Below are positions 10,003 to 22,135 of a stretch of 41,098 nt of DNA, piece by piece. The notes below the pieces were generated by a model. It did not search any database and had not been told where the DNA came from. It saw only the letters and a program-made list of their open reading frames with translations. Both the position numbers and the translations under genes were made by a program. Within the stretch, counting starts at the first letter, position 1. Each line of letters starts with the position of its first letter. The stretch comes from Zetaproteobacteria bacterium CG_4_9_14_3_um_filter_49_83. GTDB taxonomy: Bacteria; Pseudomonadota; Zetaproteobacteria; Mariprofundales; Mariprofundaceae. The stretch covers positions 1 to 41,098 of the forward strand of contig PFXG01000073.1 in the NCBI GenBank assembly GCA_002791545.1. Direction: 5' to 3'.

Positions 10003-10044
10003 AAGGACAGCCTGAACAGAAGTAAGTTCAGGCTGTCCTTTTTT
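10003..10044 (+). terminator. Strong intrinsic terminator after serC
   Basis: A perfect 15-bp stem (10003-10017 with 10026-10040, AAGGACAGCCTGAAC and its complement) with an 8-base loop leads straight into a T run. It lies about 50 bases after the serC stop. It separates serC from the LexA/UmuD gene. Confidence 0.92.
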
Positions 10045-10119
10045 GTATGGTTCAGCTTGCAAGTTCGGGATTCAAACAGCCCTGAAGCATACGATGACAT
10101 GGCATGGCAGTCTTGCAAA

Positions 10120-10135
10120 GTACACGGGCGTGTAC
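10120..10135. promoter_or_regulatory. Candidate LexA-type operator GTACAC-N4-GTGTAC
   Basis: A perfect 6+6 palindrome, GTACAC GGGC GTGTAC, ends 12 bases before the chosen start of the LexA/UmuD-like gene. It sits in the 17-base spacer between TTGCAA (10113-10118, possible -35) and CATGCT (10136-10141, weak -10). A bound repressor here would block RNA polymerase. The half-site differs from the known enterobacterial (CTGT/ACAG) and Gram-positive (GAAC/GTTC) LexA motifs. Assignment to this regulator is inferred from position and symmetry. Confidence 0.6.
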
Positions 10136-10147
10136 CATGCTTTCGGC

Positions 10148-10720
10148 ATGGTAAACAACGATGAAATCTATCTGGGTAAGCTTCAGGACTATTATGCGCA
10201 GCATCGGGGTATCCCGTCTTATGCGGGCATCGGTTCGCTGATTGGCGTGAGTAAACGTGCGGCGGTGAAATTTGTTGATCGCATGAAGGCAGCCGGTTGT
10301 CTGAATAAGTCGCCGGATGGCCGGGTGACGCCGACGACGACATTTTTTTCCCGCCCTTATGTTGGCAATGCTCCGGCGGGATTTGCCAGCCCGGCGGCAG
10401 AATTGATGGGCGATGCGATTACGATTGATGAATATCTGGTTGAGCATCCATCCAGCACGGTGCTGGTGCAGGTGCAGGGTGACTCGATGATCGGTGCGGG
10501 TATTCACAATGGCGATTTTCTTGTGGTGGAGCGCAGGAGTACAGCACGGGAAGGCGACATCGTGGTGGCTGTCGTTGATGGTGATTTCACCATCAAATAC
10601 CTGCAACGCGATAAGCAGGGTTATTATCTGCAACCTGCCAATCAGGCATTTCCGATGATTCGGCCGTATGCGGCACTGGATATTTATGGCGTGATGGTTG
10701 GCCTGTTCCGTAAAACATGA
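10148..10720 (+). CDS. umuD: LexA/UmuD-like self-cleaving repressor (S24 peptidase)
   Basis: A 190-residue protein. Residues about 8-52 form a winged-helix-like DNA-binding region (YYAQHRGIPSYAGIGSLIGV). The rest is a UmuD-type S24 peptidase. It has a cleavage site A77-G78 (APAGFASPA, compare CPCGFPSPA of UmuD), catalytic S113 in GDSMIGAG and K150 in DGDFTIKYL; their spacing of 37 equals that of LexA and UmuD. The extra N-terminal domain is absent from classical UmuD and recalls Acinetobacter UmuDAb, which regulates the DNA-damage response. There is no clear ribosome site at 10148, and the mRNA may be leaderless. It overlaps umuC by ATGA. It is probably both regulator and polymerase subunit. 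Confidence 0.85.
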   Translation: MVNNDEIYLGKLQDYYAQHRGIPSYAGIGSLIGVSKRAAVKFVDRMKAAGCLNKSPDGRVTPTTTFFSRPYVGNAPAGFASPAAELMGDAITIDEYLVEHPSSTVLVQVQGDSMIGAGIHNGDFLVVERRSTAREGDIVVAVVDGDFTIKYLQRDKQGYYLQPANQAFPMIRPYAALDIYGVMVGLFRKT

Positions 10721-11955
10721 GGCCGATGACGGACTGGCGCAATGCCATCGCCCACATCGATGCCGATTGTTTCTATGTGTCGTGCGAAATGACACGCCAC
10801 CCCGAATTGCAAGGCCAGCCTGTTTGTGTCTTATTCAATCAGGGCGCTTTCGTGATTGCCAAAAGTTACGATGCCAAAGCCAGGGGAATCAGCACGGGCA
10901 TGTCGGTGTGGGATGCCAGAAAACGAATGCCCGATGCGGTATTTCTGATGCCTGATTTTCATTATTACGGCCTGCTGTCGGAGAAGATGTTTGCCGTTTT
11001 CAGGCGCTTTTCTCCCGATGTGGAAGTGTATTCAATCGATGAGGCATTCGTCGATATGAATGGAATCCGCTCACTCTGGCACAAGAGTTTTCGGCAACTG
11101 GGCGATGCAATCCGGCATGCTGTTGCCGCCGAGGTGGGCATCACGGTATCGGTCGGTATTTCCACCAGCAAAACCTTGGCCAAAATCGCCTCGGAATGTA
11201 ACAAACCCGATGGCACGACGGTGATTCCGGGCAAGCGCATCGGGCGTTTTCTGGCCGATATTGCGGTGCAGGATATTCCCGGCATCGGCCGCAACCGCGC
11301 TTGCCTGCTGCATAAGTTCAATATCCGCACAGCTGCACAATTTGCCATGGCAGAAGAGTCGCAAATTGGGCGAGTACTGGGTCGGCATGGACTTGTACTG
11401 TGGCATGAGCTGAATGGAGAGTCAGTGCAGAAGCTGGCGCTTAACCCGCCATTACCCAAGAGCATCGCCCGCACGGCATCGATGGGGCAGGTCTCCGACA
11501 GCAGGACGCTGCTGGCGGCGCATTTGTCACATCATACGCACCGGCTGGTGTCCGAACTAGTCGCCAAGGGTCTGTTCACCGAGCGGATTTCGGTGTTTCT
11601 TTCACGCCAGTCGTTTGAAAACACAGGGGTCGAGATGCGCATGGATTGCCCGACCAACAGCCTGCAAAGGATCTCCGAGGCTGTGCGGAAGGCATTTATG
11701 GCGCTGTACCGGAATGAAGAGCGCTATCGGGGCTGCGGCGTTGTGGCAAGCAGGATCAGTCGTGCATCGACGGCAACAGCGGATCTTTTTGGCCAGATGC
11801 AGGCCGATCAACGGCAAACGGAACTGATGCTGACAATCAACACGATCAACGACAAATACGGCAGGCATATGGTCACATCCGGGGCCGCCAGCAGGCTGGG
11901 TAAACATCAGTCCAATGCCATCCGCTTTCGCTATCCGCTACTGAAAGCTGGCTGA
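10717..11955 (+). CDS. umuC: Translesion DNA polymerase V subunit UmuC (Y family)
   Basis: A 412-residue Y-family polymerase. Metal-binding D15 lies in HIDADCFYV, and D108/E109 in YSIDEAF. A helix-hairpin-helix region (DIPGIGRNRACLLHK) and the little-finger domain (about 245-350) follow. A clamp-binding-like ATADLFGQ lies near 356. With UmuD' it copies damaged DNA during the SOS response. Its start overlaps the upstream gene (ATGA at 10717), so both are one SOS-type operon controlled from the palindrome at 10120-10135. A second in-frame ATG lies 9 bases downstream. Confidence 0.95.
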   Translation: MRPMTDWRNAIAHIDADCFYVSCEMTRHPELQGQPVCVLFNQGAFVIAKSYDAKARGISTGMSVWDARKRMPDAVFLMPDFHYYGLLSEKMFAVFRRFSPDVEVYSIDEAFVDMNGIRSLWHKSFRQLGDAIRHAVAAEVGITVSVGISTSKTLAKIASECNKPDGTTVIPGKRIGRFLADIAVQDIPGIGRNRACLLHKFNIRTAAQFAMAEESQIGRVLGRHGLVLWHELNGESVQKLALNPPLPKSIARTASMGQVSDSRTLLAAHLSHHTHRLVSELVAKGLFTERISVFLSRQSFENTGVEMRMDCPTNSLQRISEAVRKAFMALYRNEERYRGCGVVASRISRASTATADLFGQMQADQRQTELMLTINTINDKYGRHMVTSGAASRLGKHQSNAIRFRYPLLKAG

Positions 11956-12048: not shown

Positions 12049-13713
12049 ATGCTGAGCAAAACACTTAAGATACTACTGGTGGATGCCGAGGCGACTCATG
12101 TGGAGATGATTCGGCATTCGCTTGAAGCAACGGATTCTTCTACGCAACTTGTTGTTGCAGGGTCTTTGGCTGAAGCTGAGAAATTCCTGCAAGACAACAC
12201 CCCGGACATGATCATTAGCGATTATCTGTTGCCCGATGGTAAGGGGATGCAGCTGCTACCCGGCGATGTTGAAAAGCGCACCATGCCGATTGTGATGCTT
12301 ATGGCCCATGGCGATGAAAAGGTCGCTGCGGCTTCGCTGAAGGCCGGTGCTCTGGATTATATCGTTAAATCTGATGCAAGCCTGCGTGATGTGTCGAATA
12401 TGGTTCAGCGTAGCTTACGCGAGTGGGAGCACATTGCTCAGTGCAGAAAGGCTAAAAGGGAACTGGCGGAGAGTGAGGAGCGCTTAAAACTTGCCATGCG
12501 TGTGGCCAATCAAGCCTGGTTTGATGTTAATGTGCAGACGGGAGAAGCTTGTATAAGCCCGGAATGCGCAGTCATGCTTGGTTATGAGCCTGAAACTTTC
12601 AAGTCATCGTTGCAGATCTGGATGGATAATCTGCACCCGGATGATCGCGATGCTGCGATAGCGGCTTACCGCTCATGTCTTGTTTCCGGCGAACCATTGT
12701 CCATGGAGTATCGCAGGCAAAGTAAATCCGGGGATTGGTTGTGGATGCATTCCATAGGCCGGGTCGTGGAATGGGATGAGACAAAGCAAGCGTTGCGTAT
12801 AATTGGCATTCATATGCTCGTTTCCGAGCGAAAGGCATTGGAAAAAGTCTGGAAACAATACGCATTCATCGTCAATAGCTCGCAGAACTTCATGAATCTG
12901 ATTGACCGGAATTATGTCTATCAATCTGTGAACGATGCTTTCCTGAAGGCACATGGTGTGAGACGGGAAGAGGTGATCGGCAAGACGGTGGCTGATATCT
13001 GGGGAGAGGAAACCTTTAATTCGGAGATCAAGCCGATCATGGATCAATGCTTTTCCGGCAAACTCACCAGGCATGTGTTTGAATTTGAGTTTAATTCGCC
13101 AGTGATCGGGCCGCGCTATTATGAGGCTAGCTTTTATCCTTACACGGATGATGAGGGTAAAACTGAGCTGGCCACAGTGGTGACACGTGATGTCACCGAA
13201 AGGAAACAGGCAGAGAGTTCGCTGAAGGAAAATGAGGAGAAGTTCGAATCACTCATTCAAAATATGAGCGAAGGTGTTGCGCTGCATAAAATAATTAACG
13301 ATGCAAATGGTTGCCCTGTGGATTATCGAATACTGGATATTAATCCTGCATTCGAGCGACATACCGGATTATCTGCCGACAAGGTCAGAGGGCAATTGGC
13401 AACAGCGCTTTATGAGGTGCATACAGCACCATACCTTGAGGATTACGCGCGGGTGGCGCTTACCGGTGAACCTTGCAGTTTTGAGACTGCCTTTTCCCCA
13501 CTGCAACGGCACTTTGAGGTTTCTGTGTTCTCTCCCGGAAAGGGTCTTTTTGCCACGGTATTTACGGACATTACGCAACGCAAACAGTCTGAACAGCAAC
13601 TTCAGGAACGCTTCGACGAAATTGAACGGATCAATCGCTTGATGGTCGGACGTGAATTGAAGATGGAAGAACTCCGGCAGGAAATCAAACGGCTGAAAGG
13701 AAATGCCGTATGA
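12049..13713 (+). CDS. Response regulator REC-PAS-PAS-PAS protein without output domain
   Basis: A 554-residue cytoplasmic protein. An N-terminal receiver (about 6-125) has phospho-acceptor D58 in IISDYLLPDG and the conserved lysine in DYIVKSD. Three PAS domains follow (about 140-265, 275-395 and 405-515), each closing with a (D/S)xTxRKQ-type exit such as VTRDVTERKQAE. A terminal coiled coil (about 515-550) contains ERINRLMVGRELKMEELRQE. No kinase, GGDEF, EAL or DNA-binding domain is present, so it probably relays signals by partner contact. The start at 12049 is preceded by AGGAGG; a TTG at 12028 is possible. It overlaps the next gene by ATGA. Confidence 0.85.
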   Translation: MLSKTLKILLVDAEATHVEMIRHSLEATDSSTQLVVAGSLAEAEKFLQDNTPDMIISDYLLPDGKGMQLLPGDVEKRTMPIVMLMAHGDEKVAAASLKAGALDYIVKSDASLRDVSNMVQRSLREWEHIAQCRKAKRELAESEERLKLAMRVANQAWFDVNVQTGEACISPECAVMLGYEPETFKSSLQIWMDNLHPDDRDAAIAAYRSCLVSGEPLSMEYRRQSKSGDWLWMHSIGRVVEWDETKQALRIIGIHMLVSERKALEKVWKQYAFIVNSSQNFMNLIDRNYVYQSVNDAFLKAHGVRREEVIGKTVADIWGEETFNSEIKPIMDQCFSGKLTRHVFEFEFNSPVIGPRYYEASFYPYTDDEGKTELATVVTRDVTERKQAESSLKENEEKFESLIQNMSEGVALHKIINDANGCPVDYRILDINPAFERHTGLSADKVRGQLATALYEVHTAPYLEDYARVALTGEPCSFETAFSPLQRHFEVSVFSPGKGLFATVFTDITQRKQSEQQLQERFDEIERINRLMVGRELKMEELRQEIKRLKGNAV

Positions 13714-14978
13714 AAAAGTTGATGGATATGATTGCGGGTATTTACTCAGGCTTATGGCTGCTGTTGCTGGCATGGGTGTTGATCGCAGCGGCATCGTTGA
13801 CCTGGAATATGAAGGAGCTGTACGAGCACAGCATGGATGAGGTGAAAGTGAATGCCAAAGCCTTGTTTAGTCAGGAATTAATATTTCGCAGATGGAATGC
13901 CGGACATGGCGGCGTATATGTTCCCATCACAGAAACAACGCAACCCAATCCTTATTTGAGTCATATTCCTGAGCGGGATGTGACGACCACCACCGGTAAA
14001 AAACTGACCCTGATCAATCCGGCTTATATGTCGCGTCAGCTGCATGAACTGATGCTGGAAGACGCAGGTGGCAGGCGTGGACATATCACCAGCCTGAAGC
14101 CGATACGAGCAGAGAATAAAGCCGATGCATGGGAGACATCGGTGTTAAAAACGTTTGAAGCTGGCAAGTCCGAAGCCTTTTCGCGTGAAAAGATGGCGGA
14201 CGGCAAAGAATATTTCCGTTTTATGGGACGACTGCTGGTTGAACAGAGTTGTCTGAAATGTCATGCCACGCAGGGTTATAAGCTTGGCGATGTGCGAGGA
14301 GGAATCAGTATTTCGGTGCCGGTGGAAGCTGAGGTCGCTTTATTGGAACACAAAGAAAGAGCGCTCTTCATCGGTCATGCGTTGCTCTGGGGGCTGGGTT
14401 GGGTGGTGCTGTTTATCGGTGGTGTGAAGCATACAGAAGCTAAAGCGGAGAGAAGAAGAGTAAATGAGACGTTCAGAACGCTGTATTCATCTTCTCGTGA
14501 TGCCATTATGATATTGTCGACAGAGGGGCTTTTAATCAGTGGAAATCAGGCCTCGATAACCATGTACGGTTGTCGTGATGAAGCGGAGCTGGTTACGATG
14601 TCATTGCCTGGATTGTGCCCGGAGATTCAGCCGGATGGCCGCAAATCCGTAGAGATAGAGCAAGAGAAAAGGCAACAGGCACTCCGGGACGAGGTAAACT
14701 TCTTCGAGTGCGTGCACAGGCGTGTGGATGGCACAGTGTTTCCGACAGAGGTGATGTTGACGCGTATGGAGGTGGATGGCAAAACACTGTTGCAAGCATC
14801 CGTACGCGATATCAGTGAACGCCGGCTGGCTGAAGAGAGCCTCAAAGATCGCCTGACTGAGCTCGAGCGTTTTCATGCCGCAACCATTGAACGCGAGTTT
14901 CGCATCAAGCAATTGCGTGATGAAATTGCCGCGCTGAAAGCCGCGAGCCGCCTGGGAGATAGCCATGAAACAGATTGA
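13710..14978 (+). CDS. Membrane sensor: periplasmic c-type heme (DUF3365/Tll0287-like) plus PAS
   Basis: A 422-residue protein. TM1 (about 10-30) is followed by a periplasmic DUF3365 domain (about 35-215) carrying one heme-c motif C181-L-K-C184-H185 (EQSCLKCHATQGY). TM2 (about 219-238), a cytoplasmic PAS domain (about 250-375) and a C-terminal coiled coil (ELERFHAATIEREFRIKQLR) follow. Tll0287-type domains are thought to sense redox state or small gases through heme. There is no kinase or cyclase output. The tail resembles that of the upstream REC-PAS protein, so the two may dimerise or share a partner. It starts in the ATGA overlap and overlaps the ODP gene by 14 bases. Confidence 0.87.
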   Translation: MKKLMDMIAGIYSGLWLLLLAWVLIAAASLTWNMKELYEHSMDEVKVNAKALFSQELIFRRWNAGHGGVYVPITETTQPNPYLSHIPERDVTTTTGKKLTLINPAYMSRQLHELMLEDAGGRRGHITSLKPIRAENKADAWETSVLKTFEAGKSEAFSREKMADGKEYFRFMGRLLVEQSCLKCHATQGYKLGDVRGGISISVPVEAEVALLEHKERALFIGHALLWGLGWVVLFIGGVKHTEAKAERRRVNETFRTLYSSSRDAIMILSTEGLLISGNQASITMYGCRDEAELVTMSLPGLCPEIQPDGRKSVEIEQEKRQQALRDEVNFFECVHRRVDGTVFPTEVMLTRMEVDGKTLLQASVRDISERRLAEESLKDRLTELERFHAATIEREFRIKQLRDEIAALKAASRLGDSHETD

Positions 14979-15732
14979 TATTACCAAGGCGGCACATGCG
15001 CCAACAGTGTTGTATGAAAACAATGGTCATGCCATTTACTGGCTCGGTATCGCTGAACCCACCGCTTTTCGCTCCAATGTATACCTGATCCGGGATGGCA
15101 AGGAGGCTTTGCTGGTTGATCCTGGCAATCGCGCTTTTTTCTCACAGGTGTGGCAACGCGTGGCACAGATCATGCCACCGGATCAGGTCAGCGGCATGAT
15201 TGTTTGTCATCAGGATCCGGATGTGGCGGCTTCGATGGCTGACTGGCTTGGCATCAATCCACAGATGCGTGTGTACACCTCGCCGCGCACGCAGGTGTTG
15301 CTGCCTTATTATGGGTGTCCGGATTATGATTACGTGGATGTTGAGGCGAATCCTTTGCTGGAACTGCCTTCTGGAGCTGTGCTGCATTTTAAAGCCGCGC
15401 CTTTTTTACATTTCCCGGGTGCTTTTGCCAGTTTTGATATGGCTGCCGGGTTTCTATTTTCAGGCGATGTGTTTGCCTCGCTGGATGTAGGAAGTCGGTT
15501 GATAGCTGAGGAATTCGAGATGCTGGCTGGTAATATGGGTATGTTTCATGCCGACTATATGGCTTCGAACATCGCCACGCATGGTTTTGTGAACAGTCTT
15601 ACTGGCCTGGATGTGCGGATGATTCTGCCGCAGCACGGCCAATTGATAGGTACCGATTTCGTTGCCGGGGCTATGCACTGGCTGGCGGGGTTGCAATGCG
15701 GAACGGATTTGATTTATCCGGAACTATCCTGA
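14965..15732 (+). CDS. ODP-type oxygen-binding diiron metallo-beta-lactamase-fold protein
   Basis: A 255-residue protein resembling the diiron half of flavodiiron proteins, with no flavodoxin domain. Candidate iron ligands are H82, D84 and D86 (CHQDPDVAAS), H149 (FLHFPG), D168 (FSGDVF) and H224 (PQHGQ). Compared with HxExDH of flavodiiron proteins, Glu is Asp and the last His is Val. ODP proteins bind oxygen; in Treponema denticola one acts as an oxygen sensor for chemotaxis. GGAGAT precedes the ATG. It lies between a heme sensor and a c-di-GMP phosphodiesterase, which suggests a sensing rather than detoxifying role. A reductive O2 or NO scavenging role remains possible. Confidence 0.8.
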   Translation: MKQIDITKAAHAPTVLYENNGHAIYWLGIAEPTAFRSNVYLIRDGKEALLVDPGNRAFFSQVWQRVAQIMPPDQVSGMIVCHQDPDVAASMADWLGINPQMRVYTSPRTQVLLPYYGCPDYDYVDVEANPLLELPSGAVLHFKAAPFLHFPGAFASFDMAAGFLFSGDVFASLDVGSRLIAEEFEMLAGNMGMFHADYMASNIATHGFVNSLTGLDVRMILPQHGQLIGTDFVAGAMHWLAGLQCGTDLIYPELS

Positions 15733-15757
15733 AGATATGAGTGGCAGGGAAATGTCT

Positions 15758-17338
15758 ATGCAAGCAAGCAGTCTGGAGCAGGAAAATACCCGGTTGAAAC
15801 AGCAACTGGCGCAAGCCAGGCGTTTGCAACGCCAGTACGATGAGGTTGTCAGAAAGCTGAAGTTCGCAGAAATGAAAAACAGCGCGATATTGTCCGGGGC
15901 TCCCGATGCCATCATAAGCATGGATTATGAGGGTCGCATCCTCGCTTTTAATACGGCGGCGGAAAAGATGTTTGGCTATTCGAAGCTCGATGCTGTCGGC
16001 AAGCCGATGGAAGAACTCATTATACCCTCGCACTTGCGCAAGATGGTCAGGCAGAGACTGGCCAGAAGTGTTGCCGATGAGCGTCGTGGTGAAGGGCATG
16101 ATGCGCACATGGAAACCACGGCCATGCGTGCAGATGGTTCGATAATATCGGTCAGCTTCAGCATCGCACATGTAACTTGTGACGGTCTGCAATTGCTTAT
16201 CGGATTCGTTAAGGACATCAGTGAGCGAAGAAAAATGGATGCGCTGTTGAATTATACACGGGAGCGCCTTGAGACAGTGCAGAATATTGCCAGGCTTGGC
16301 AGCTGGGAGATGAATCTGCTCAACGGTGGTTTGTGGTGGTCTGATGAAGTTTATCACATGTTCAGTCTTGATCCGGAACGCTTTAATACTACGTATAAGA
16401 CATTTATCGATATCGTGCATCCGGAGGATCGCGATCTGGTTGAGCGCACCTACAGAGCTTCCGTTAAGAGCCAGTCACCCTATCAGCTTGTACACCGGCT
16501 GTTGTTGCCGGATGGTTCAGCCAGGTGGGTGCTTGAGCACTGTAAAACCATCTATGCCGATGACGGAACGCCGCTACGCTCCATTGGCACGATATCTGAT
16601 ATCACCGAACGTAAACATATGGAAGACTCGTTGCGCCAACGTGTGGAAGAAGGTGAGATGGCGCGTAAGGCTATGCTCTACATGCTTGAGGATATCAATG
16701 AGTCTTCTGAGGTTCTGCAAAAGACCAATGAGGAACTCGAACACACGCATGTGCAGCTGCATGCTGCGTTGGAGGGTTGTATTAATGCTATCGGCAAAGC
16801 GGTTGAGGCGCGTGACCCATACACCTCCGGCCATCAGCGGCGTGTTGCCGATCTTGCCTGTGCCATTGCCGTTGAATTGGGGTTGGATAAGGATCAAATT
16901 GAAGGTATCCGTATGGGCAGTTTGATCCATGATATTGGTAAAATTCATCTTCCGGCGGAGATTCTCAGTAAACCATCCCGTTTGTCTGAGATGGAACTTA
17001 TGCTGGTAAATACCCACTCACAGGTTGGCTATGAGATTCTCAAGGACATTCAATTTCCGTGGCCGGTTGCCCAGATCGCATATCAGCATCACGAGCGGAT
17101 GGATGGTTCCGGTTATCCGCAAGGTTTGAAGGGTGAGGATATTTGTCTGGAAGCACGAATCGTTGCCGTGGCCGATGTGGTCGAGGCGATGGCCAGTCAT
17201 CGTCCTTACAGAGCTGGACTGGGTATCGATAAGGCGCTGGAAGAAATCCGGCAGCATCGGCAGACATTATATGCCCCGGCCGTCGTTGATGCCTGTATCA
17301 GCTTGTTCGAAAATAAAGCATACGAGATGCTCGTTTAA
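15758..17338 (+). CDS. PAS-PAS-HD-GYP cyclic-di-GMP phosphodiesterase
   Basis: A 526-residue protein. An N-terminal coiled coil (about 1-35) is followed by a PAS domain (about 40-155) and a second PAS with PAC (about 175-290). A linker helix and the HD-GYP domain (about 325-520) follow, with HDIGKIHLP and HHERMDGSGYPQGLKG. HD-GYP proteins linearise or hydrolyse c-di-GMP; the full HD and GYP signatures predict activity. The ATG at 15758 has AGGGA 7 bases upstream; ATGs at 15737 and 15752 are alternatives. It begins a few bases after the ODP stop, as the last gene of the operon that starts at 12049. Confidence 0.9.
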   Translation: MQASSLEQENTRLKQQLAQARRLQRQYDEVVRKLKFAEMKNSAILSGAPDAIISMDYEGRILAFNTAAEKMFGYSKLDAVGKPMEELIIPSHLRKMVRQRLARSVADERRGEGHDAHMETTAMRADGSIISVSFSIAHVTCDGLQLLIGFVKDISERRKMDALLNYTRERLETVQNIARLGSWEMNLLNGGLWWSDEVYHMFSLDPERFNTTYKTFIDIVHPEDRDLVERTYRASVKSQSPYQLVHRLLLPDGSARWVLEHCKTIYADDGTPLRSIGTISDITERKHMEDSLRQRVEEGEMARKAMLYMLEDINESSEVLQKTNEELEHTHVQLHAALEGCINAIGKAVEARDPYTSGHQRRVADLACAIAVELGLDKDQIEGIRMGSLIHDIGKIHLPAEILSKPSRLSEMELMLVNTHSQVGYEILKDIQFPWPVAQIAYQHHERMDGSGYPQGLKGEDICLEARIVAVADVVEAMASHRPYRAGLGIDKALEEIRQHRQTLYAPAVVDACISLFENKAYEMLV

Positions 17339-17484
17339 TCTTGTTGTCTATCCTGCGCTTGCTCACATGTTGTTCCGCAGCCACAATAGAGCCAATATGG
17401 CTTTGCTATACAACAGAATGCTGCTTGAGTGATGACAAAAGCACGCATCAGCGAAAATAGCGATCATCTTATGGAACAGAAATC

Positions 17485-17622
17485 ATGTATTCTGAAGTTA
17501 ATGGTCAAGCGATGTCAGAGGCAAGAGCTGGTGAAGAAGGTGGTGAGCGGGCGATGAAAAAACGGGCGAACTTTTATATTCGAGATGCGCAGCCGATTCA
17601 GAACGAGATGGGCCACGTGTGA
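17485..17622 (+). CDS. Possible small upstream CDS coupled to REC-HD-GYP (45 aa)
   Basis: An ATG at 17485 opens a 45-codon frame rich in charged residues, with MKKRANFYIRDAQPIQ in its second half. It stops with TGA at 17620-17622. That stop overlaps the GTG start of the next gene as GTGA, the same junction style used by established gene pairs in this window. No strong ribosome site is seen; internal ATGs at 17512 and 17554 could be the true start. It may be a leader peptide that couples translation to the phosphodiesterase. No family is recognised. Confidence 0.4.
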   Translation: MYSEVNGQAMSEARAGEEGGERAMKKRANFYIRDAQPIQNEMGHV

Positions 17623-18737
17623 TAAAACTCCTGCTTGTCGATGATAACGAGGATGCAAGAGATGTGCAGAGCCTCATCTTTAGCAGTCATGGTTATGAAG
17701 TCATGACTGCCGAGAACGGGGTTGATGCCATGGAGTACATCCGGCAATCAAGGCCCGACTTAATCATCACAGATGTTCTCATGCCGAAAATGGATGGTTA
17801 TGAACTCTGCCGCAGGCTTAAAACTGATAAAACCCTTAAAGATATCCCGATTGTTTTTTATTCGGCGCATTATCTTGATCCGCAAGATGAGAAAATGGCA
17901 CGTGATTTGGGCGTTGTACAACTGATTCAGAAGCCGATGGATACGGCAGAATTTCTGCGCATTATCGACGGTATCGTGCAACAATTCGGCAAATCTGAAT
18001 TTTTGCCACCGGTGTGGCTTTTCAAAGAAGATCTAGATTTCGAGCGTAAACATGAGCAACGCCTGACCGAGATGCTGTATAAAAAGCTTGGTGAATTAGA
18101 ACAAACCCGCAGCATGCTTAAAAACGCACTTGAAGGAACGATTGCCACAGTTGCTCTGGCCGTCGAAGCCAGAGACCCGTCAACGTCAGGTCATCAGCGG
18201 CGGGTTGCTACGCTGGCTGAAGCGATTGCGCGTGAAATGAAGCTGGAGGAGAAGCAGGTCGAAGGCATTCGAATGGGTGCTACGATTCATGATATCGGCA
18301 AGATTCAAATTCCGGCCGAGATACTCGGTAAGCCTGCAAAGTTATCTGATATTGAAATTCATCTGGTTCAGGAGCATACAACGGTTGGCTACAATATTCT
18401 GAAAGTAGTCGCGTTTCCATGGCCTGTGGCTCAAATCGCATATCAGCATCATGAAAGAATGGATGGTTCCGGTTATCCGCAAGGTTTGAAGGGTGATGAG
18501 ATATCTCTGGAAGCCCGTATTGTCGCTGTGGCGGATGTGGTTGAAGCGATGCTCAGTCATCGTCCCTACAGGGAAGCCCAGGCTGTTGAAGTGGCTTTGG
18601 AAGAAATAAAGCAGCGTCGTGGTACGCTGTATGATCCGCTTGTTGTTGATGCATGCCTGTCGTTGTTTCAGCTGAAGAATTTTCGCCTGGAGTCAGAAGG
18701 GCGCCGTGACACAGATGCTGGCATCAGAGCACAATAA
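17619..18737 (+). CDS. Response regulator REC-HD-GYP cyclic-di-GMP phosphodiesterase
   Basis: A 372-residue protein. The receiver domain (about 2-120) has acidic residues in VDDNED, phospho-acceptor D52 in IITDVLMPKMDG and lysine in QLIQKP. A helical linker and an HD-GYP domain (about 165-355) follow, with HDIGKIQIP and HHERMDGSGYPQGLKG. This is the RpfG-type layout, in which phosphorylation controls c-di-GMP breakdown. The start is GTG within a GTGA overlap, and no good ribosome site precedes it. The HD-GYP domain is a close paralogue of the one ending at 17338. No cognate histidine kinase lies in the window. Confidence 0.92.
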   Translation: MIKLLLVDDNEDARDVQSLIFSSHGYEVMTAENGVDAMEYIRQSRPDLIITDVLMPKMDGYELCRRLKTDKTLKDIPIVFYSAHYLDPQDEKMARDLGVVQLIQKPMDTAEFLRIIDGIVQQFGKSEFLPPVWLFKEDLDFERKHEQRLTEMLYKKLGELEQTRSMLKNALEGTIATVALAVEARDPSTSGHQRRVATLAEAIAREMKLEEKQVEGIRMGATIHDIGKIQIPAEILGKPAKLSDIEIHLVQEHTTVGYNILKVVAFPWPVAQIAYQHHERMDGSGYPQGLKGDEISLEARIVAVADVVEAMLSHRPYREAQAVEVALEEIKQRRGTLYDPLVVDACLSLFQLKNFRLESEGRRDTDAGIRAQ

Positions 18738-18820: not shown

Positions 18821-19351
18821 TCAACCGCAATTCCAGCCATTTGCACCTGTTAGGTCCATGATTGAGTCAGTTGGATCAGTAATGTCAGCATCGGCTAAGG
18901 GGTTATAACTTTTTTTGAAACAGGGCGTACCCGGAGCGTCAAGGTCAATAGCAATAATTTTTGAGCCCCCATGGTGGCGGCCACCGCAGATAACAGATTG
19001 TTTGCTGGCACTTACTTTACACAGGACATCAACTTTTTTTGATAAATTAATTTCAAATCTTTGAGCCGAACCATCTAAGAGGGCAACATTGATAGATACT
19101 GCACCAGTGGCTTGTTTGTCAGCAATTGTTACGGGCGCAAATTCAGCGTGCTCATTGAAAAATTGGTTCTCAAAGAGAAAAACATGGTGTACATCTGAAT
19201 GAGCGGCTGAATTGCTCGCGTTTTCTTTGTGTTTGGCGAACATAGGGGTGGCAATAGAAGCTAAAATTCCGATAATCGCAATTACGATCATGATTTCAAT
19301 TAACGTAAAACCAAATTCATTACGTCTTTTGCGAGTCTCTGGTTTACGCAT
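18821..19351 (-). CDS. Type IV pilin-like protein (second pilin of the locus)
   Basis: A 176-residue prepilin. A basic leader (MRKPETRKRRNEFG) is followed by the prepilin peptidase site G/FTLIE with Glu at position 5, and the hydrophobic helix MIVIAIIGILASIATPMF. The globular part (about 60-176) has four cysteines, two in LCKVSASKQSVICGG. The ATG at 19351 has GAGGAT about 7 bases upstream. An in-frame ATG at 19450 overlaps the upstream gene by ATGA but would give an unusually long 47-residue leader. It is the last gene of the pilA-ABC cluster and may be a minor or alternative pilin, or a pseudopilin. Confidence 0.85.
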   Translation of the reverse strand: MRKPETRKRRNEFGFTLIEIMIVIAIIGILASIATPMFAKHKENASNSAAHSDVHHVFLFENQFFNEHAEFAPVTIADKQATGAVSINVALLDGSAQRFEINLSKKVDVLCKVSASKQSVICGGRHHGGSKIIAIDLDAPGTPCFKKSYNPLADADITDPTDSIMDLTGANGWNCG

Positions 19352-19446
19352 TGGCTTATCCTCAAGCATTTTGGTGTGTTCAATTGGAGATTTTTTAACG
19401 CATTGGTGCGAGGGAGTCAAGCTACGGGATCCTAATAAGTGCTTAT

Positions 19447-20139
19447 TCATAGTGCGTCTGGCTTGCTTTCTGCTTGCTCTTTGAGTTTTTGGATGCGAAT
19501 TTCAATTCCGTGTTGCATGGATGGCGGTAGTGTTTGCTTTCGCGCTTGCAGAAATGCGATGGCGGCTTCAAGGCTGATTTCGTCTTTCATTAAACGAGAA
19601 GCAAAGCCGAAGGCCATGACAGGCGCATTGGTTTTGCCAGTGGCTATTTGCGCTAAAGTTAAAGCGCGTTTTTTGTCATTTAGCTGCGTTGAGGCAATGA
19701 AAGAAGCGACCAGCGGTATAAGCCAGTCATCCATCACCTGGCTGCCCTTCGAAAGTAATGCAACGGCTTCATTCGGCATGTTGGCATCATACGGCAAGAG
19801 CCCTTCGGCAAGGCGATACGTGTCACGAAATTTAGGGTCGAGGTGTTGCGCTATTTGAAGCTCCTGATGCAGTGTGCTCCAGGCATAGTCGTTTTGTTCA
19901 TTGTCGAGAGTTTTTTGCGAGGTATCAGAGTAGATGGTGAAAACACGGAGGATAGAAAAGTCGGCACACATGCCGGGAAGTTGTCCGCATGCAACATCAA
20001 ACAACCATAATTTGGGTGACTGGGGCTGATAATAAAAATTCTTTTCTGTTGGACCGATGCCGGATTGTGTGCGCGCAAAAACCAGCAATGTAAGCATGCT
20101 GAATATCAGTAAGCCAAGGCGAAAAGCCTTTGTGTTCAC
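19447..20139 (-). CDS. Membrane-anchored helical protein of the pilin-ABC locus (possible PilG counterpart)
   Basis: A 230-residue protein. One N-terminal hydrophobic segment (about 8-24, GLLIFSMLTLLVFA) is followed by a mostly helical region with TPR/SEL-like periodicity (DPKFRDTYRLAEGLLPYDANMPNEAVALL). The start is GTG at 20139, in a GTGA overlap with the permease stop. The frame extends further upstream, but that part lies within the permease gene and I reject it. In Myxococcus xanthus, pilG accompanies the ABC genes pilH and pilI beside pilA. Equivalence here is inferred from position, not from visible sequence similarity. Confidence 0.75.
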   Translation of the reverse strand: MNTKAFRLGLLIFSMLTLLVFARTQSGIGPTEKNFYYQPQSPKLWLFDVACGQLPGMCADFSILRVFTIYSDTSQKTLDNEQNDYAWSTLHQELQIAQHLDPKFRDTYRLAEGLLPYDANMPNEAVALLSKGSQVMDDWLIPLVASFIASTQLNDKKRALTLAQIATGKTNAPVMAFGFASRLMKDEISLEAAIAFLQARKQTLPPSMQHGIEIRIQKLKEQAESKPDAL

Positions 20140-20933
20140 AGATCCTGCCTGGAAAAAAGAAGAACAGATACAATTAAGGCTAAAATAGCGTAGCTGACAT
20201 GTTCCAGGATAAAGAATAAAGCTTGGGATATGGCTACAGCATCGCCATGCGAGATCATCAAAGATATCTGATGCCCATTTAAATGCGGTAATAGCTGATA
20301 AACGGAAGATATCGCGAACAACAGCCAGCCAGGCATAGTCTGAGAAACTTCCGGATTCTGTGTGGCAGCAAGAACAGGTGGAATGACCCATGCGATGACC
20401 CAGACAAGAAAAACCATTACCAATAATTCGTTTTCACCGCTAGCCCAACTGAAGAACAACATGGCAATGGCAATCATGCTTATGTATTCGATGGCATAGA
20501 GCATGACGCCACTTATAATGAAAGTGGGAACAAAGTCTTCGGCATACCCTTCCCATAGGTGGGTGATAAGGCTGGCTATCAGAGTTGAGGAGATGGCAAG
20601 GCAAAGCATCAGCAACAGGAACATCAGAGAAATACCGATGAAACGTGACAATATGTATTGTGGGCGAGATATGCTTTGACCAACCAGCATAAAATAGAAG
20701 CGATTTTTCAAATCTTGTGCCAGAAAAGGGACGGCTAATAATAATAAAAATATCACCGCAAGCAGATGGCTGAAGGTAAAAATGCCGTCGATATAGACTT
20801 TCCCAAGGTCCAGCATAAATAACGAGGCAAATACAGCGGCCAAAACAGGCATAACCAGGGTGCTTGCAAGCAAGACCCGGAAGCTTAGTAAGTTCCAGAA
20901 CTCAAGCGTGGTTAGTCGAATTACTCTATGCAT
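20136..20933 (-). CDS. ABC-2-type transporter permease of the pilin locus (PilI-like)
   Basis: A 265-residue integral membrane protein with about six predicted helices, for example near 17-38 (FRVLLASTLVMPVLAAVFASLF), 50-70, 100-125, 140-165, 172-192 and 240-260. It should form the channel for the ATPase encoded just upstream, whose gene it overlaps by 13 bases. In M. xanthus the comparable PilH/PilI transporter is required for type IV pilus assembly; its cargo is unknown. The placement between two pilin genes supports the same role. The sequence alone says only ABC-2 permease. Confidence 0.82.
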   Translation of the reverse strand: MHRVIRLTTLEFWNLLSFRVLLASTLVMPVLAAVFASLFMLDLGKVYIDGIFTFSHLLAVIFLLLLAVPFLAQDLKNRFYFMLVGQSISRPQYILSRFIGISLMFLLLMLCLAISSTLIASLITHLWEGYAEDFVPTFIISGVMLYAIEYISMIAIAMLFFSWASGENELLVMVFLVWVIAWVIPPVLAATQNPEVSQTMPGWLLFAISSVYQLLPHLNGHQISLMISHGDAVAISQALFFILEHVSYAILALIVSVLLFSRQDL

Positions 20934-21616
20934 ACTTTGTTACGCTCGTGTAAGGCTAGTCTGGATTCGATAATTTCCACCTCAGCGATAGAATGTTCGG
21001 TGATGGTAAATGTTTCGGCAATTTCCCCATGGGAAATTAAAACAATTTTGTGGCATATGCGAACAAGATCGGCTACCTGATGGCTGCAAATTAAAATGCT
21101 GCCGCCATTGTTGTGAAAGTCAGAAAAGACGTCCAGCATGTGCCTTCTTCCCAGTGCATCCAGGCCAGACATGGGTTCATCGAGGATGAGCCATTTAGCC
21201 CGCGATGCCAGTGTAAAAGCTATGGATGTGCGTTGTCGCATGCCCTTGGAGTATTCGTTTGTTTTCCGATGCCAGGATTCTTCATTCAAGGCAACTTGCC
21301 GCAATAGACGTTCTGTTTCTCGTGGCTTGTTCCGGGTTGCGAAGTTGAGAAGTTGCCAGGCAGATAAAGTGGATGGCAAGCAACTTACTTCAGGTAAATA
21401 ACTGATATCACCCGGTTTGATGGGTTTACCGTTAAGAGCAATATTGCCCTGATCAGGATTGATCAGGCCCAGTATGGATTTGATAAGGGTGCTTTTTCCG
21501 GCACCATTGACGCCAAGCAGGCCTGTGATGGTGTTGTCAGTAAAGTCACTGCATATATTATTTAAAATGGTGCGCTGGTTATAAGCTTTGCGTAAATGCT
21601 GAAGAGAGAGGTTCAT
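20921..21616 (-). CDS. ABC transporter ATP-binding protein of the pilin locus (PilH-like)
   Basis: A 231-residue ATPase with complete motifs: Walker A G35-T43 (GVNGAGKST), signature YSKGMRQR near 122-129, Walker B with D146/E147 (WLILDEPMSGLD), and switch H179 (ICSHQ). The Q-loop position reads YLPE, as in many ABC-2 exporters. It pairs with the permease downstream (13-base overlap). It starts about 58 bases after the pilA stop, just past a hairpin, so it is probably expressed by read-through at a lower level than pilA. It is compared with M. xanthus PilH by gene order. Confidence 0.88.
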   Translation of the reverse strand: MNLSLQHLRKAYNQRTILNNICSDFTDNTITGLLGVNGAGKSTLIKSILGLINPDQGNIALNGKPIKPGDISYLPEVSCLPSTLSAWQLLNFATRNKPRETERLLRQVALNEESWHRKTNEYSKGMRQRTSIAFTLASRAKWLILDEPMSGLDALGRRHMLDVFSDFHNNGGSILICSHQVADLVRICHKIVLISHGEIAETFTITEHSIAEVEIIESRLALHERNKVCIE

Positions 21617-21619
21617 AAG

Positions 21620-21653
21620 AATAAAACAAAAGGGAGGCTGGCATGCCAGCCTC
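21620..21653 (-). terminator. Terminator or attenuator between pilA and the ABC genes
   Basis: A perfect 20-base palindrome (21634-21653, GAGGCTGGCA and its complement) begins about 20 bases after the pilA stop. On the minus strand it is followed by CCTTTTGTTTTATT. Partial termination here would let the abundant pilin be made in excess of the transporter subunits. Confidence 0.8.
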
Positions 21654-21673
21654 TCAATGTGCCGTTAATCTAA

Positions 21674-22135
21674 TTAACAGCCAGGTGCAGTTACGTCGGC
21701 ATCGAGCAATACAGTACCAGCAGTGCTGGCAGCTTCCACCATGGATGGAGCATCACTGGCTACGTTGTAAATTTTATCGCCAGGTGCGTTTTTGGTCGCA
21801 GCGCCATAGCACTGATTTGTGGTTCCGATTACAGAAGCAAAGGCAACATTCTTAGAAAGATTGATTACAACAGGTGCTGCAAGTCCTGCTGCAGTATCTA
21901 AAGTGGCCGTGCCGGTAGCTACAAGGACAGTTTTAGGATATTCTGAATTGTCATTGAAGAAAACTTCATAAGCAGTTGCTGCACCTTTAAGGTCTGATTG
22001 TGCAGCCGTGTTGAATGCTTTAATGCGGTATGATGCAAACTGTGGAATCGCTACAGCGGCCAGAATACCGATAATTGCAACTACGATCATCAGTTCGATC
22101 AGGGTGAAGCCTTGTTCTTTGTTCATTGGTTTCAT
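21674..22135 (-). CDS. pilA: Major type IV pilin PilA
   Basis: A 153-residue prepilin. A short leader (MKPMNKEQG) is followed by the cleavage/methylation site G/FTLIE and the classic N-terminal helix [20 protein letters not shown]. The globular domain ends with Cys in VTAPGC, which can pair with the Cys in TTNQCYG as the usual D-region loop. AGGAG precedes the ATG by about 7 bases. It is first in the pilin-ABC cluster, with a sigma-54-type promoter at 22191-22207. Pilins of this class support twitching motility and attachment, as well as DNA uptake. Confidence 0.93.

What the first reader, a model, noticed from the sequence alone, without database searches (positions are those of the whole stretch)
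12049..18737. Heme-c / diiron / PAS relay linked to two c-di-GMP phosphodiesterases
Overlapping or tightly spaced genes encode, in order, REC-PAS-PAS-PAS, a membrane sensor with periplasmic CxxCH heme plus PAS, an ODP-type diiron protein and PAS-PAS-HD-GYP, followed by REC-HD-GYP. Seen: domains, ligand residues, and overlaps or short gaps joining the first four genes. Known: ODP binds oxygen and serves chemotaxis in Treponema; HD-GYP degrades c-di-GMP. Inferred: this is an oxygen/redox sensing system that lowers c-di-GMP, with periplasmic (heme) and cytoplasmic (diiron) inputs. I know of no described system with this set of parts.
Basis: partly seen in the sequence, partly recalled or inferred. 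Interest (0 to 1): 0.8.

Follow-up and report, generated by a model that had tools for sequence, protein, structure and literature searches.

The report
Plug-in oxygen sensor for c-di-GMP enzymes
In an iron-oxidising marine bacterium, a small oxygen-binding di-iron protein is encoded right before a c-di-GMP-degrading enzyme that starts with a helix shared by most partners of this protein in other bacteria, whether enzyme or kinase, so the pair looks like a sensor that plugs into interchangeable outputs.

Summary
The five genes and their domains are as described. The window lies in a Mariprofundaceae genome (microaerophilic Fe(II) oxidisers). The full set (REC-PAS3, heme-c sensor, ODP, PAS-HD-GYP, REC-HD-GYP) is not conserved. 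The conserved unit is ODP plus the gene directly 3' of it. In 68 of 79 close ODP loci from several phyla, that gene, whatever its output (kinase, GGDEF, GGDEF-EAL or HD-GYP), begins with one ~40-residue helix (window effector: LEQENTRLKQQLAQARRLQRQYDEVVRKLK). The same helix sits behind ODP in natural ODP-GGDEF and ODP-kinase fusions. A profile of it found 10 sites in 397 genomes, 9 next to an ODP. Two other ODP clades show the same design with different helices. Best reading: ODP is a detachable O2/iron sensor subunit that docks on this helix; here it controls an HD-GYP phosphodiesterase. The heme-c sensor belongs to a family (sCache_heme) whose membrane-bound type binds NO, so it may add an NO or redox input. 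Direction of control, partner contact and metal content are untested. ODP as a sensor, and its linkage to signalling genes, were published in 2019; the helix rule and the HD-GYP pairing were not found in the literature held here.

The parts
12049..13713 (+). REC-PAS-PAS-PAS protein without catalytic domain, ending in a coiled tail; ATG start with GGAGG upstream
13710..14978 (+). Membrane sensor: periplasmic Tll0287/DUF3365 (sCache_heme) domain between two apparent membrane segments, then PAS and the same coiled tail; no catalytic domain
   Evidence: membrane segments read by eye
14250..14264 (+). CxxCH heme-c attachment motif (CLKCH)
14965..15732 (+). ODP, stand-alone oxygen-binding di-iron protein (255 aa)
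15208..15222 (+). HQDPD metal-site motif of ODP
15737..17338 (+). PAS-PAS-HD-GYP phosphodiesterase, the direct ODP partner
15764..15883 (+). N-terminal helix of the partner (aa 10-49), the conserved ODP-associated motif; profile hit at 15764-15874
17619..18737 (+). REC-HD-GYP phosphodiesterase, probably a neighbour unit; also beside the ODP pair in L067

Best explanation
ODP (14965-15732) is a detachable cytoplasmic O2/Fe(II) sensor subunit. It docks on the N-terminal helix of the PAS-PAS-HD-GYP protein encoded right after it (helix at 15764-15883). Oxygenation (di-iron-peroxo) or loss of iron would change ODP's shape or pairing; this would be passed down the dimeric helix through the PAS domains to switch the HD-GYP phosphodiesterase and so shift c-di-GMP, and with it the choice between attached and motile life at the O2/Fe(II) interface. 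The two upstream kinase-less proteins, one with a periplasmic heme-c domain that may sense NO or redox, probably add further inputs through their coiled tails. Shown here: the genes, ligand sets, conserved pairing, the shared helix on unrelated outputs, its position behind ODP in fusions, and its near-exclusive presence at ODP loci. From the literature: a related ODP is an O2 sensor, and tethered sCache_heme binds NO. Inferred: physical docking, signal path, sign of the effect, and the role of genes 1 and 2.
For: ODP identity: PF19583, solved relatives, ligands; the modelled natural fusion L093 matches the T. maritima/T. denticola ODPs, including the peroxy-diiron form 6r9n, TM-score 0.89-0.92 by target length. 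Pairing: 68 of 79 loci of this ODP clade have the helix 538-691 bp 3' of HQDPD, no hit on the reverse strand. One helix on different outputs: profiles trained without a given output class recover the held-out partners. Whole N-terminal region: 4/4 HD-GYP, 18/18 GGDEF and all HK partners. 40-residue core: 4/4, 18/18 and 26/41 at E<0.01; only 4 other ORFs of 1561 hit, and all 4 are themselves in ODP clusters. Genome-wide: 10 hits in 397 genomes of 231 genera, 9 next to an ODP. Natural fusions with the helix behind ODP: L049 ODP-PAS-GAF-GGDEF, L093 ODP-HK, L078 ODP-PAS-GGDEF (the L078 helix is seen by eye but is weak in the core profile). Minimal partners made of helix plus GGDEF only (L110, L111) leave ODP as the only sensor. 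Outputs were swapped repeatedly on the ODP tree: 10 changes; within the HK and GGDEF labels well-supported branches force at least 4. The same design with different helices occurs in two other ODP clades.
Against: No contact was shown: the single-chain model of a fusion gives an ODP and a straight helix, with no dimer and no interface score. A helix-bearing kinase in G013 has no detectable ODP in a 93% complete genome, and about nine ODPs of the clade have no helix gene directly 3', so the pairing is not absolute. Coiled coils can look alike by composition, though the controls found no stray hits. Five or more of the genome-wide hits were in the training set (this affects sensitivity, not specificity). 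Whether this ODP binds Fe and O2, rather than another metal or NO, is untested. HD-GYP substrate (c-di-GMP or 3',3'-cGAMP) is not fixed by sequence; the closest solved chain is a cGAMP enzyme.
Confidence: 0.72

Rival explanations
1. One reading: one heme-c / di-iron / PAS relay in which all five proteins act together to sense O2/redox and lower c-di-GMP.
For: Tight gene packing of genes 1-4; membrane or PAS sensors with the same C-terminal tail also precede ODP in L066 and L118; Tll0287 kinases near ODP in L077 and L079.
Against: The set is not conserved in the other ODP/HD-GYP loci; the tail is generic and occurs without ODP; the tethered heme domain type is an NO binder (PMC12889525).
Confidence: 0.25
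2. The helix is a generic coiled-coil linker or dimerisation segment inherited with the operon; ODP acts in another way, as an O2- or NO-consuming enzyme or iron store beside the signalling gene.
For: Coiled coils are common in signalling proteins; the ODP fold is related to the flavodiiron O2/NO reductases.
Against: Controls show the helix almost only at ODP loci and on unrelated outputs; it lies behind ODP in fusions; ODP has no flavodoxin domain; the second and third ODP clades have different helices but the same arrangement.
Confidence: 0.15
3. ODP acts mainly through the upstream PAS or membrane proteins or in trans on other kinases, and the following gene is only co-transcribed.
For: Some ODPs of the clade have no helix partner 3'; in L051 and L052 ODP follows its kinase.
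Against: The strict 3' position and the helix conservation across output swaps.
Confidence: 0.1

Closest known systems
Treponema denticola ODP (TDE2498) with the sensor-less chemoreceptor TDE2496 (Muok et al. 2019, doi 10.1073/pnas.1904234116, known here through PMC7666581 and PMC7319448)
   Same: Stand-alone ODP encoded with a signalling protein; same metal-site residues; about 31% identity; same fold
   Different: Partner here is a PAS-HD-GYP phosphodiesterase, not a chemoreceptor; no MCP or CheA in the cluster; this ODP belongs to another clade with a defined partner helix
ODPs in operons with, or fused to, signal transduction genes (Muok 2019, as summarised in PMC7319448)
   Same: Same broad phenomenon
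   Different: No shared docking helix or HD-GYP pairing is mentioned in the text available here; the 2019 paper itself could not be read
DUF3365/Tll0287 'sCache_heme' NO-binding sensors (PMC12889525)
   Same: Gene 2 has the family profile, the CxxCH motif and two apparent membrane segments
   Different: Followed by a PAS and a coiled tail, with no kinase, MCP, GGDEF or HD-GYP domain
Hemerythrin- or globin-coupled HD-GYP phosphodiesterases (PMC9388753, PMC10882959)
   Same: Gas or redox sensor coupled to an HD-GYP domain
   Different: There the sensor is a domain of the same chain; here it is a separate metallo-beta-lactamase-fold subunit
Flavodiiron proteins
   Same: Shared di-iron metallo-beta-lactamase fold
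   Different: No flavodoxin or rubredoxin domain, so no obvious electron path

Membership tests
ODP (PF19583) | Family profile above the curated cut-off | tested here: met
   189.2 bits against 27.2
ODP (PF19583) | Di-iron ligand set H-x-D-x-D...H...D...H | tested here: met
   HQDPD, H149, D168, H224
ODP (PF19583) | No flavodoxin domain | tested here: met
   255 aa; only ODP and Lactamase_B match
ODP (PF19583) | ODP fold | tested here: met
   Model of relative L093 (window ODP among its alignment rows) matches 6qwo/6qrq/6r9n; the window protein itself was not the modelled chain
ODP (PF19583) | Reversible O2 binding as di-iron peroxo | not testable with these tools
   needs purified protein
Treponema-type ODP chemotaxis system | ODP encoded with an MCP | tested here: not met
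   No chemoreceptor among the five genes
HD-GYP phosphodiesterase | HD_5 profile, HDxGK and HHExxDGxGYP | tested here: met
HD-GYP phosphodiesterase | c-di-GMP hydrolysis | not testable with these tools
   substrate could also be 3',3'-cGAMP
sCache_heme (DUF3365/Tll0287) | PF11845 profile with CxxCH | tested here: met
   78.3 bits against 24.1, CLKCH
sCache_heme (DUF3365/Tll0287) | Covalent heme and NO binding | not testable with these tools
   needs spectroscopy
Conserved five-gene relay | Same gene set in related genomes | tested here: not met
   Only ODP + effector recurs widely; upstream genes vary

The most novel reading that the evidence does not exclude
ODPs are a general plug-and-socket sensing system: separate di-iron sensor subunits that dock on short, clade-specific N-terminal helices, letting bacteria put the same O2/iron sensor in front of kinases, diguanylate cyclases or HD-GYP phosphodiesterases. 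At least three ODP clades have mutually different sockets. The window is the HD-GYP version in iron-oxidising bacteria.
Probability: 0.58. Interest if true: 0.8.

Novelty: new variant of a known kind. Interest (0 to 1): 0.7.

Why it matters
It would turn a known but little-studied O2 sensor family into a readable code: the N-terminal helix of a kinase or c-di-GMP enzyme would tell which ODP drives it. It gives microaerophilic iron oxidisers, for which c-di-GMP control of stalk formation and attachment has been proposed (PMC8250860), a candidate direct link from O2/Fe(II) to c-di-GMP. It also supplies small partners for reconstitution, such as helix-GGDEF proteins of 236-238 residues.

Tried and rejected
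Single-protein scan of genome contigs with the window ODP found no relatives; an alignment query did. A regular expression and a literature search for the C-terminal tail of genes 1-2 gave nothing; a profile showed the tail is generic and not tied to ODP, so it was dropped as a specific part. One tail alignment (A5) held a mistyped row and was not used. Profiles made from the full N-terminal region also matched generic coils before HATPase domains, so the motif was cut to its 40-residue core. AlphaFold of the natural fusion gave no docked helix and the output has no interface score; the second structure job was not used. No paper held links ODP to HD-GYP or GGDEF. The 2019 ODP paper is not held, so what it says about partners is known only second-hand. 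Promoter and terminator scans were at chance level.
Full report
OBSERVATION. The five ORFs and domains are real. Genes 1-4 (12049-17338) overlap or lie 4 bp apart; gene 5 (17619-18737) follows after 280 bp. ODP has the metal-site residues of the solved Treponema and Thermotoga proteins (HQDPD, H149, D168, H224). The HD-GYP domains keep HDxGK and HHExxDGxGYP. Gene 2 carries the DUF3365/Tll0287 domain with one CxxCH. The window's nearest named relatives are Mariprofundaceae (L066 68% and L067 66% ODP identity), in a family whose sampled genomes are 1.2-3.1 Mb.

WHAT IS CONSERVED. The whole set is not. Among 61 related genomes, Tll0287 domains are common but mostly elsewhere. In ODP clusters the domain was found in the window and, as a histidine kinase, in Gallionella L077 and Rhodoferax L079. 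The gene before ODP varies: a membrane GAF protein with the same C-terminal tail in L066, an exonuclease-like gene in L067. The tail itself (LKDRLTELERFHAATIEREFRIKQLRDEIAALKA) occurs in PAS/GAF proteins without ODP nearby. What recurs is ODP followed by a signalling output. ODP-PAS-PAS-HD-GYP is found in the window, L066, L067 and G141, with window, L066 and L067 one well-supported clade; L067 also has REC-HD-GYP and GAF-HD-GYP genes next to it. The window genome's second ODP (54% identical) precedes a PAS-PAS-kinase-REC. ODP-PAS-GAF-GGDEF and ODP-GGDEF fusions exist in the same family, the latter next to a PAS-HD-GYP gene.

THE SHARED HELIX. Lining up the starts of genes directly 3' of ODP showed one N-terminal helix on kinases, cyclases, cyclase/EAL proteins and HD-GYP proteins alike: consensus xIxxLExxxxLLxxxxxQxxRIxxxxxxxxxxLKxxxxxL, with one Gln invariant in 37 diverse rows. 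Window: ASSLEQENTRLKQQLAQARRLQRQYDEVVRKLKFAEMKNS. Leave-one-output-class-out profiles recover the held-out class (full region: 4/4 HD-GYP, 18/18 GGDEF, all HK partners; core only: 4/4, 18/18, 26/41 at E<0.01). With the core profile only 4 further ORFs of 1561 match; three lie just 3' of an ODP that the ORF caller had missed and one is in the same cluster. By direct translation, 68 of 79 loci of the clade have the helix 538-691 bp 3' of the HQDPD site, with no hit on the reverse strand; two of the 11 others end at a contig edge and one is the divergent fusion L078. In 397 genomes of the phylum (231 genera) the profile hits 10 places; 9 are next to or fused behind an ODP (one at a contig edge, checked in L163), and the tenth, G013, has no ODP. 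ODP itself is in 101 of these genomes, so the helix marks one ODP clade. In the fusions L049, L093 and L078 the helix stands between ODP and the next domain. On the ODP tree the output type changes about 10 times, so the helix was kept while outputs were exchanged.

GENERALITY. Two other ODP clades have their own conserved helix on their partners. Clade B (L058, L060, L061, L222-L224, L237, L238): LIExSLxMRxxAYLSQVKAxLLTxTIxExD on kinases and a PAS array. Clade C (L225-L235): EQxAxLAxxRxNxxLLxxLVxxFVxxERQL on kinases, minimal GGDEF proteins and one HD-GYP protein. A clade C profile trained on kinases only finds the cyclases (7e-10 to 2e-6) and the HD-GYP protein (4e-4), and nothing among 1646 background ORFs.

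STRUCTURE. AlphaFold2 of residues 1-345 of natural fusion L093, alignment of 63 sequences: mean pLDDT 92, an ODP domain followed by one helix 267-344. Some alignment rows are read-throughs of the stop between ODP and partner gene. Foldseek matches are the T. maritima and T. denticola ODPs, including the peroxy-diiron form (TM-score 0.89-0.92 by target length). The model does not show docking, and no interface score is available.

MECHANISM AND LIMITS. Most likely, dimeric ODP caps the effector's dimeric N-terminal helix, and the di-iron state (O2-bound, reduced or empty) changes helix register or separation and so the activity of the domains below. For the window this means O2/Fe control of c-di-GMP (or 3',3'-cGAMP) hydrolysis; the sign is unknown. 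This parallels the T. denticola case, where ODP is coupled to a chemoreceptor that lacks a sensor domain (PMC7666581). Gene 2 may add NO or redox sensing, since the membrane-tethered sCache_heme domain studied binds NO (PMC12889525). c-di-GMP signalling genes are enriched in Zetaproteobacteria, where c-di-GMP control of stalk formation has been proposed (PMC8250860). Direct docking, metal content and partner specificity are inferences.

NOVELTY. ODP as an O2/iron sensor, and its presence in operons with or fused to signalling genes, is known (Muok 2019, via PMC7319448). No paper held links ODP to HD-GYP or GGDEF, and none was found that describes partner helices. The 2019 paper could not be read, so novelty of the helix is likely, not certain.

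Noticed in passing
L063, L065, L174, L180, L181, L185, L188, L192, L196 (Mariprofundaceae): Another ODP clade is encoded between two small proteins; the 3' one is a Roadblock/LC7 protein (Pfam 1.7e-11) and the 5' one (~134 aa) has no Pfam match. A further kind of ODP context.
   Followed up: partly
L225-L235: ODP clade whose partners (kinase, GGDEF-only, GAF-HD-GYP) share a different N-terminal helix (EQxAxLAxxRxNxxLLxxLV...ERQL).
   Followed up: partly
L058, L060, L061, L222, L223, L224, L237, L238: ODP clade whose partners share the helix LIExSLxMRxxAYLSQVKAxLLTxTIxExD.
   Followed up: partly
G013:C143:4470-6536 (L201): Kinase with the ODP-type helix but no ODP detectable in a 93% complete genome; orphan or ODP lost.
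   Followed up: partly
L077:5847-13227: Gallionella cluster with two helix-bearing kinases around one ODP, plus a Tll0287-kinase: one ODP may serve two effectors.
   Followed up: no
window 12049-14978: Both upstream proteins lack any catalytic domain and end in the same coiled tail, which recurs on PAS/GAF proteins in other genomes; function unknown.
   Followed up: partly
window 10043-11955: LexA/UmuD-like gene followed by a Y-family DNA polymerase-like gene (judged by eye), directly upstream of the finding.
   Followed up: no
window 18821-22135, - strand: Two type IV pilin-like proteins (GFTLIE motifs) around an ABC transporter pair.
   Followed up: no
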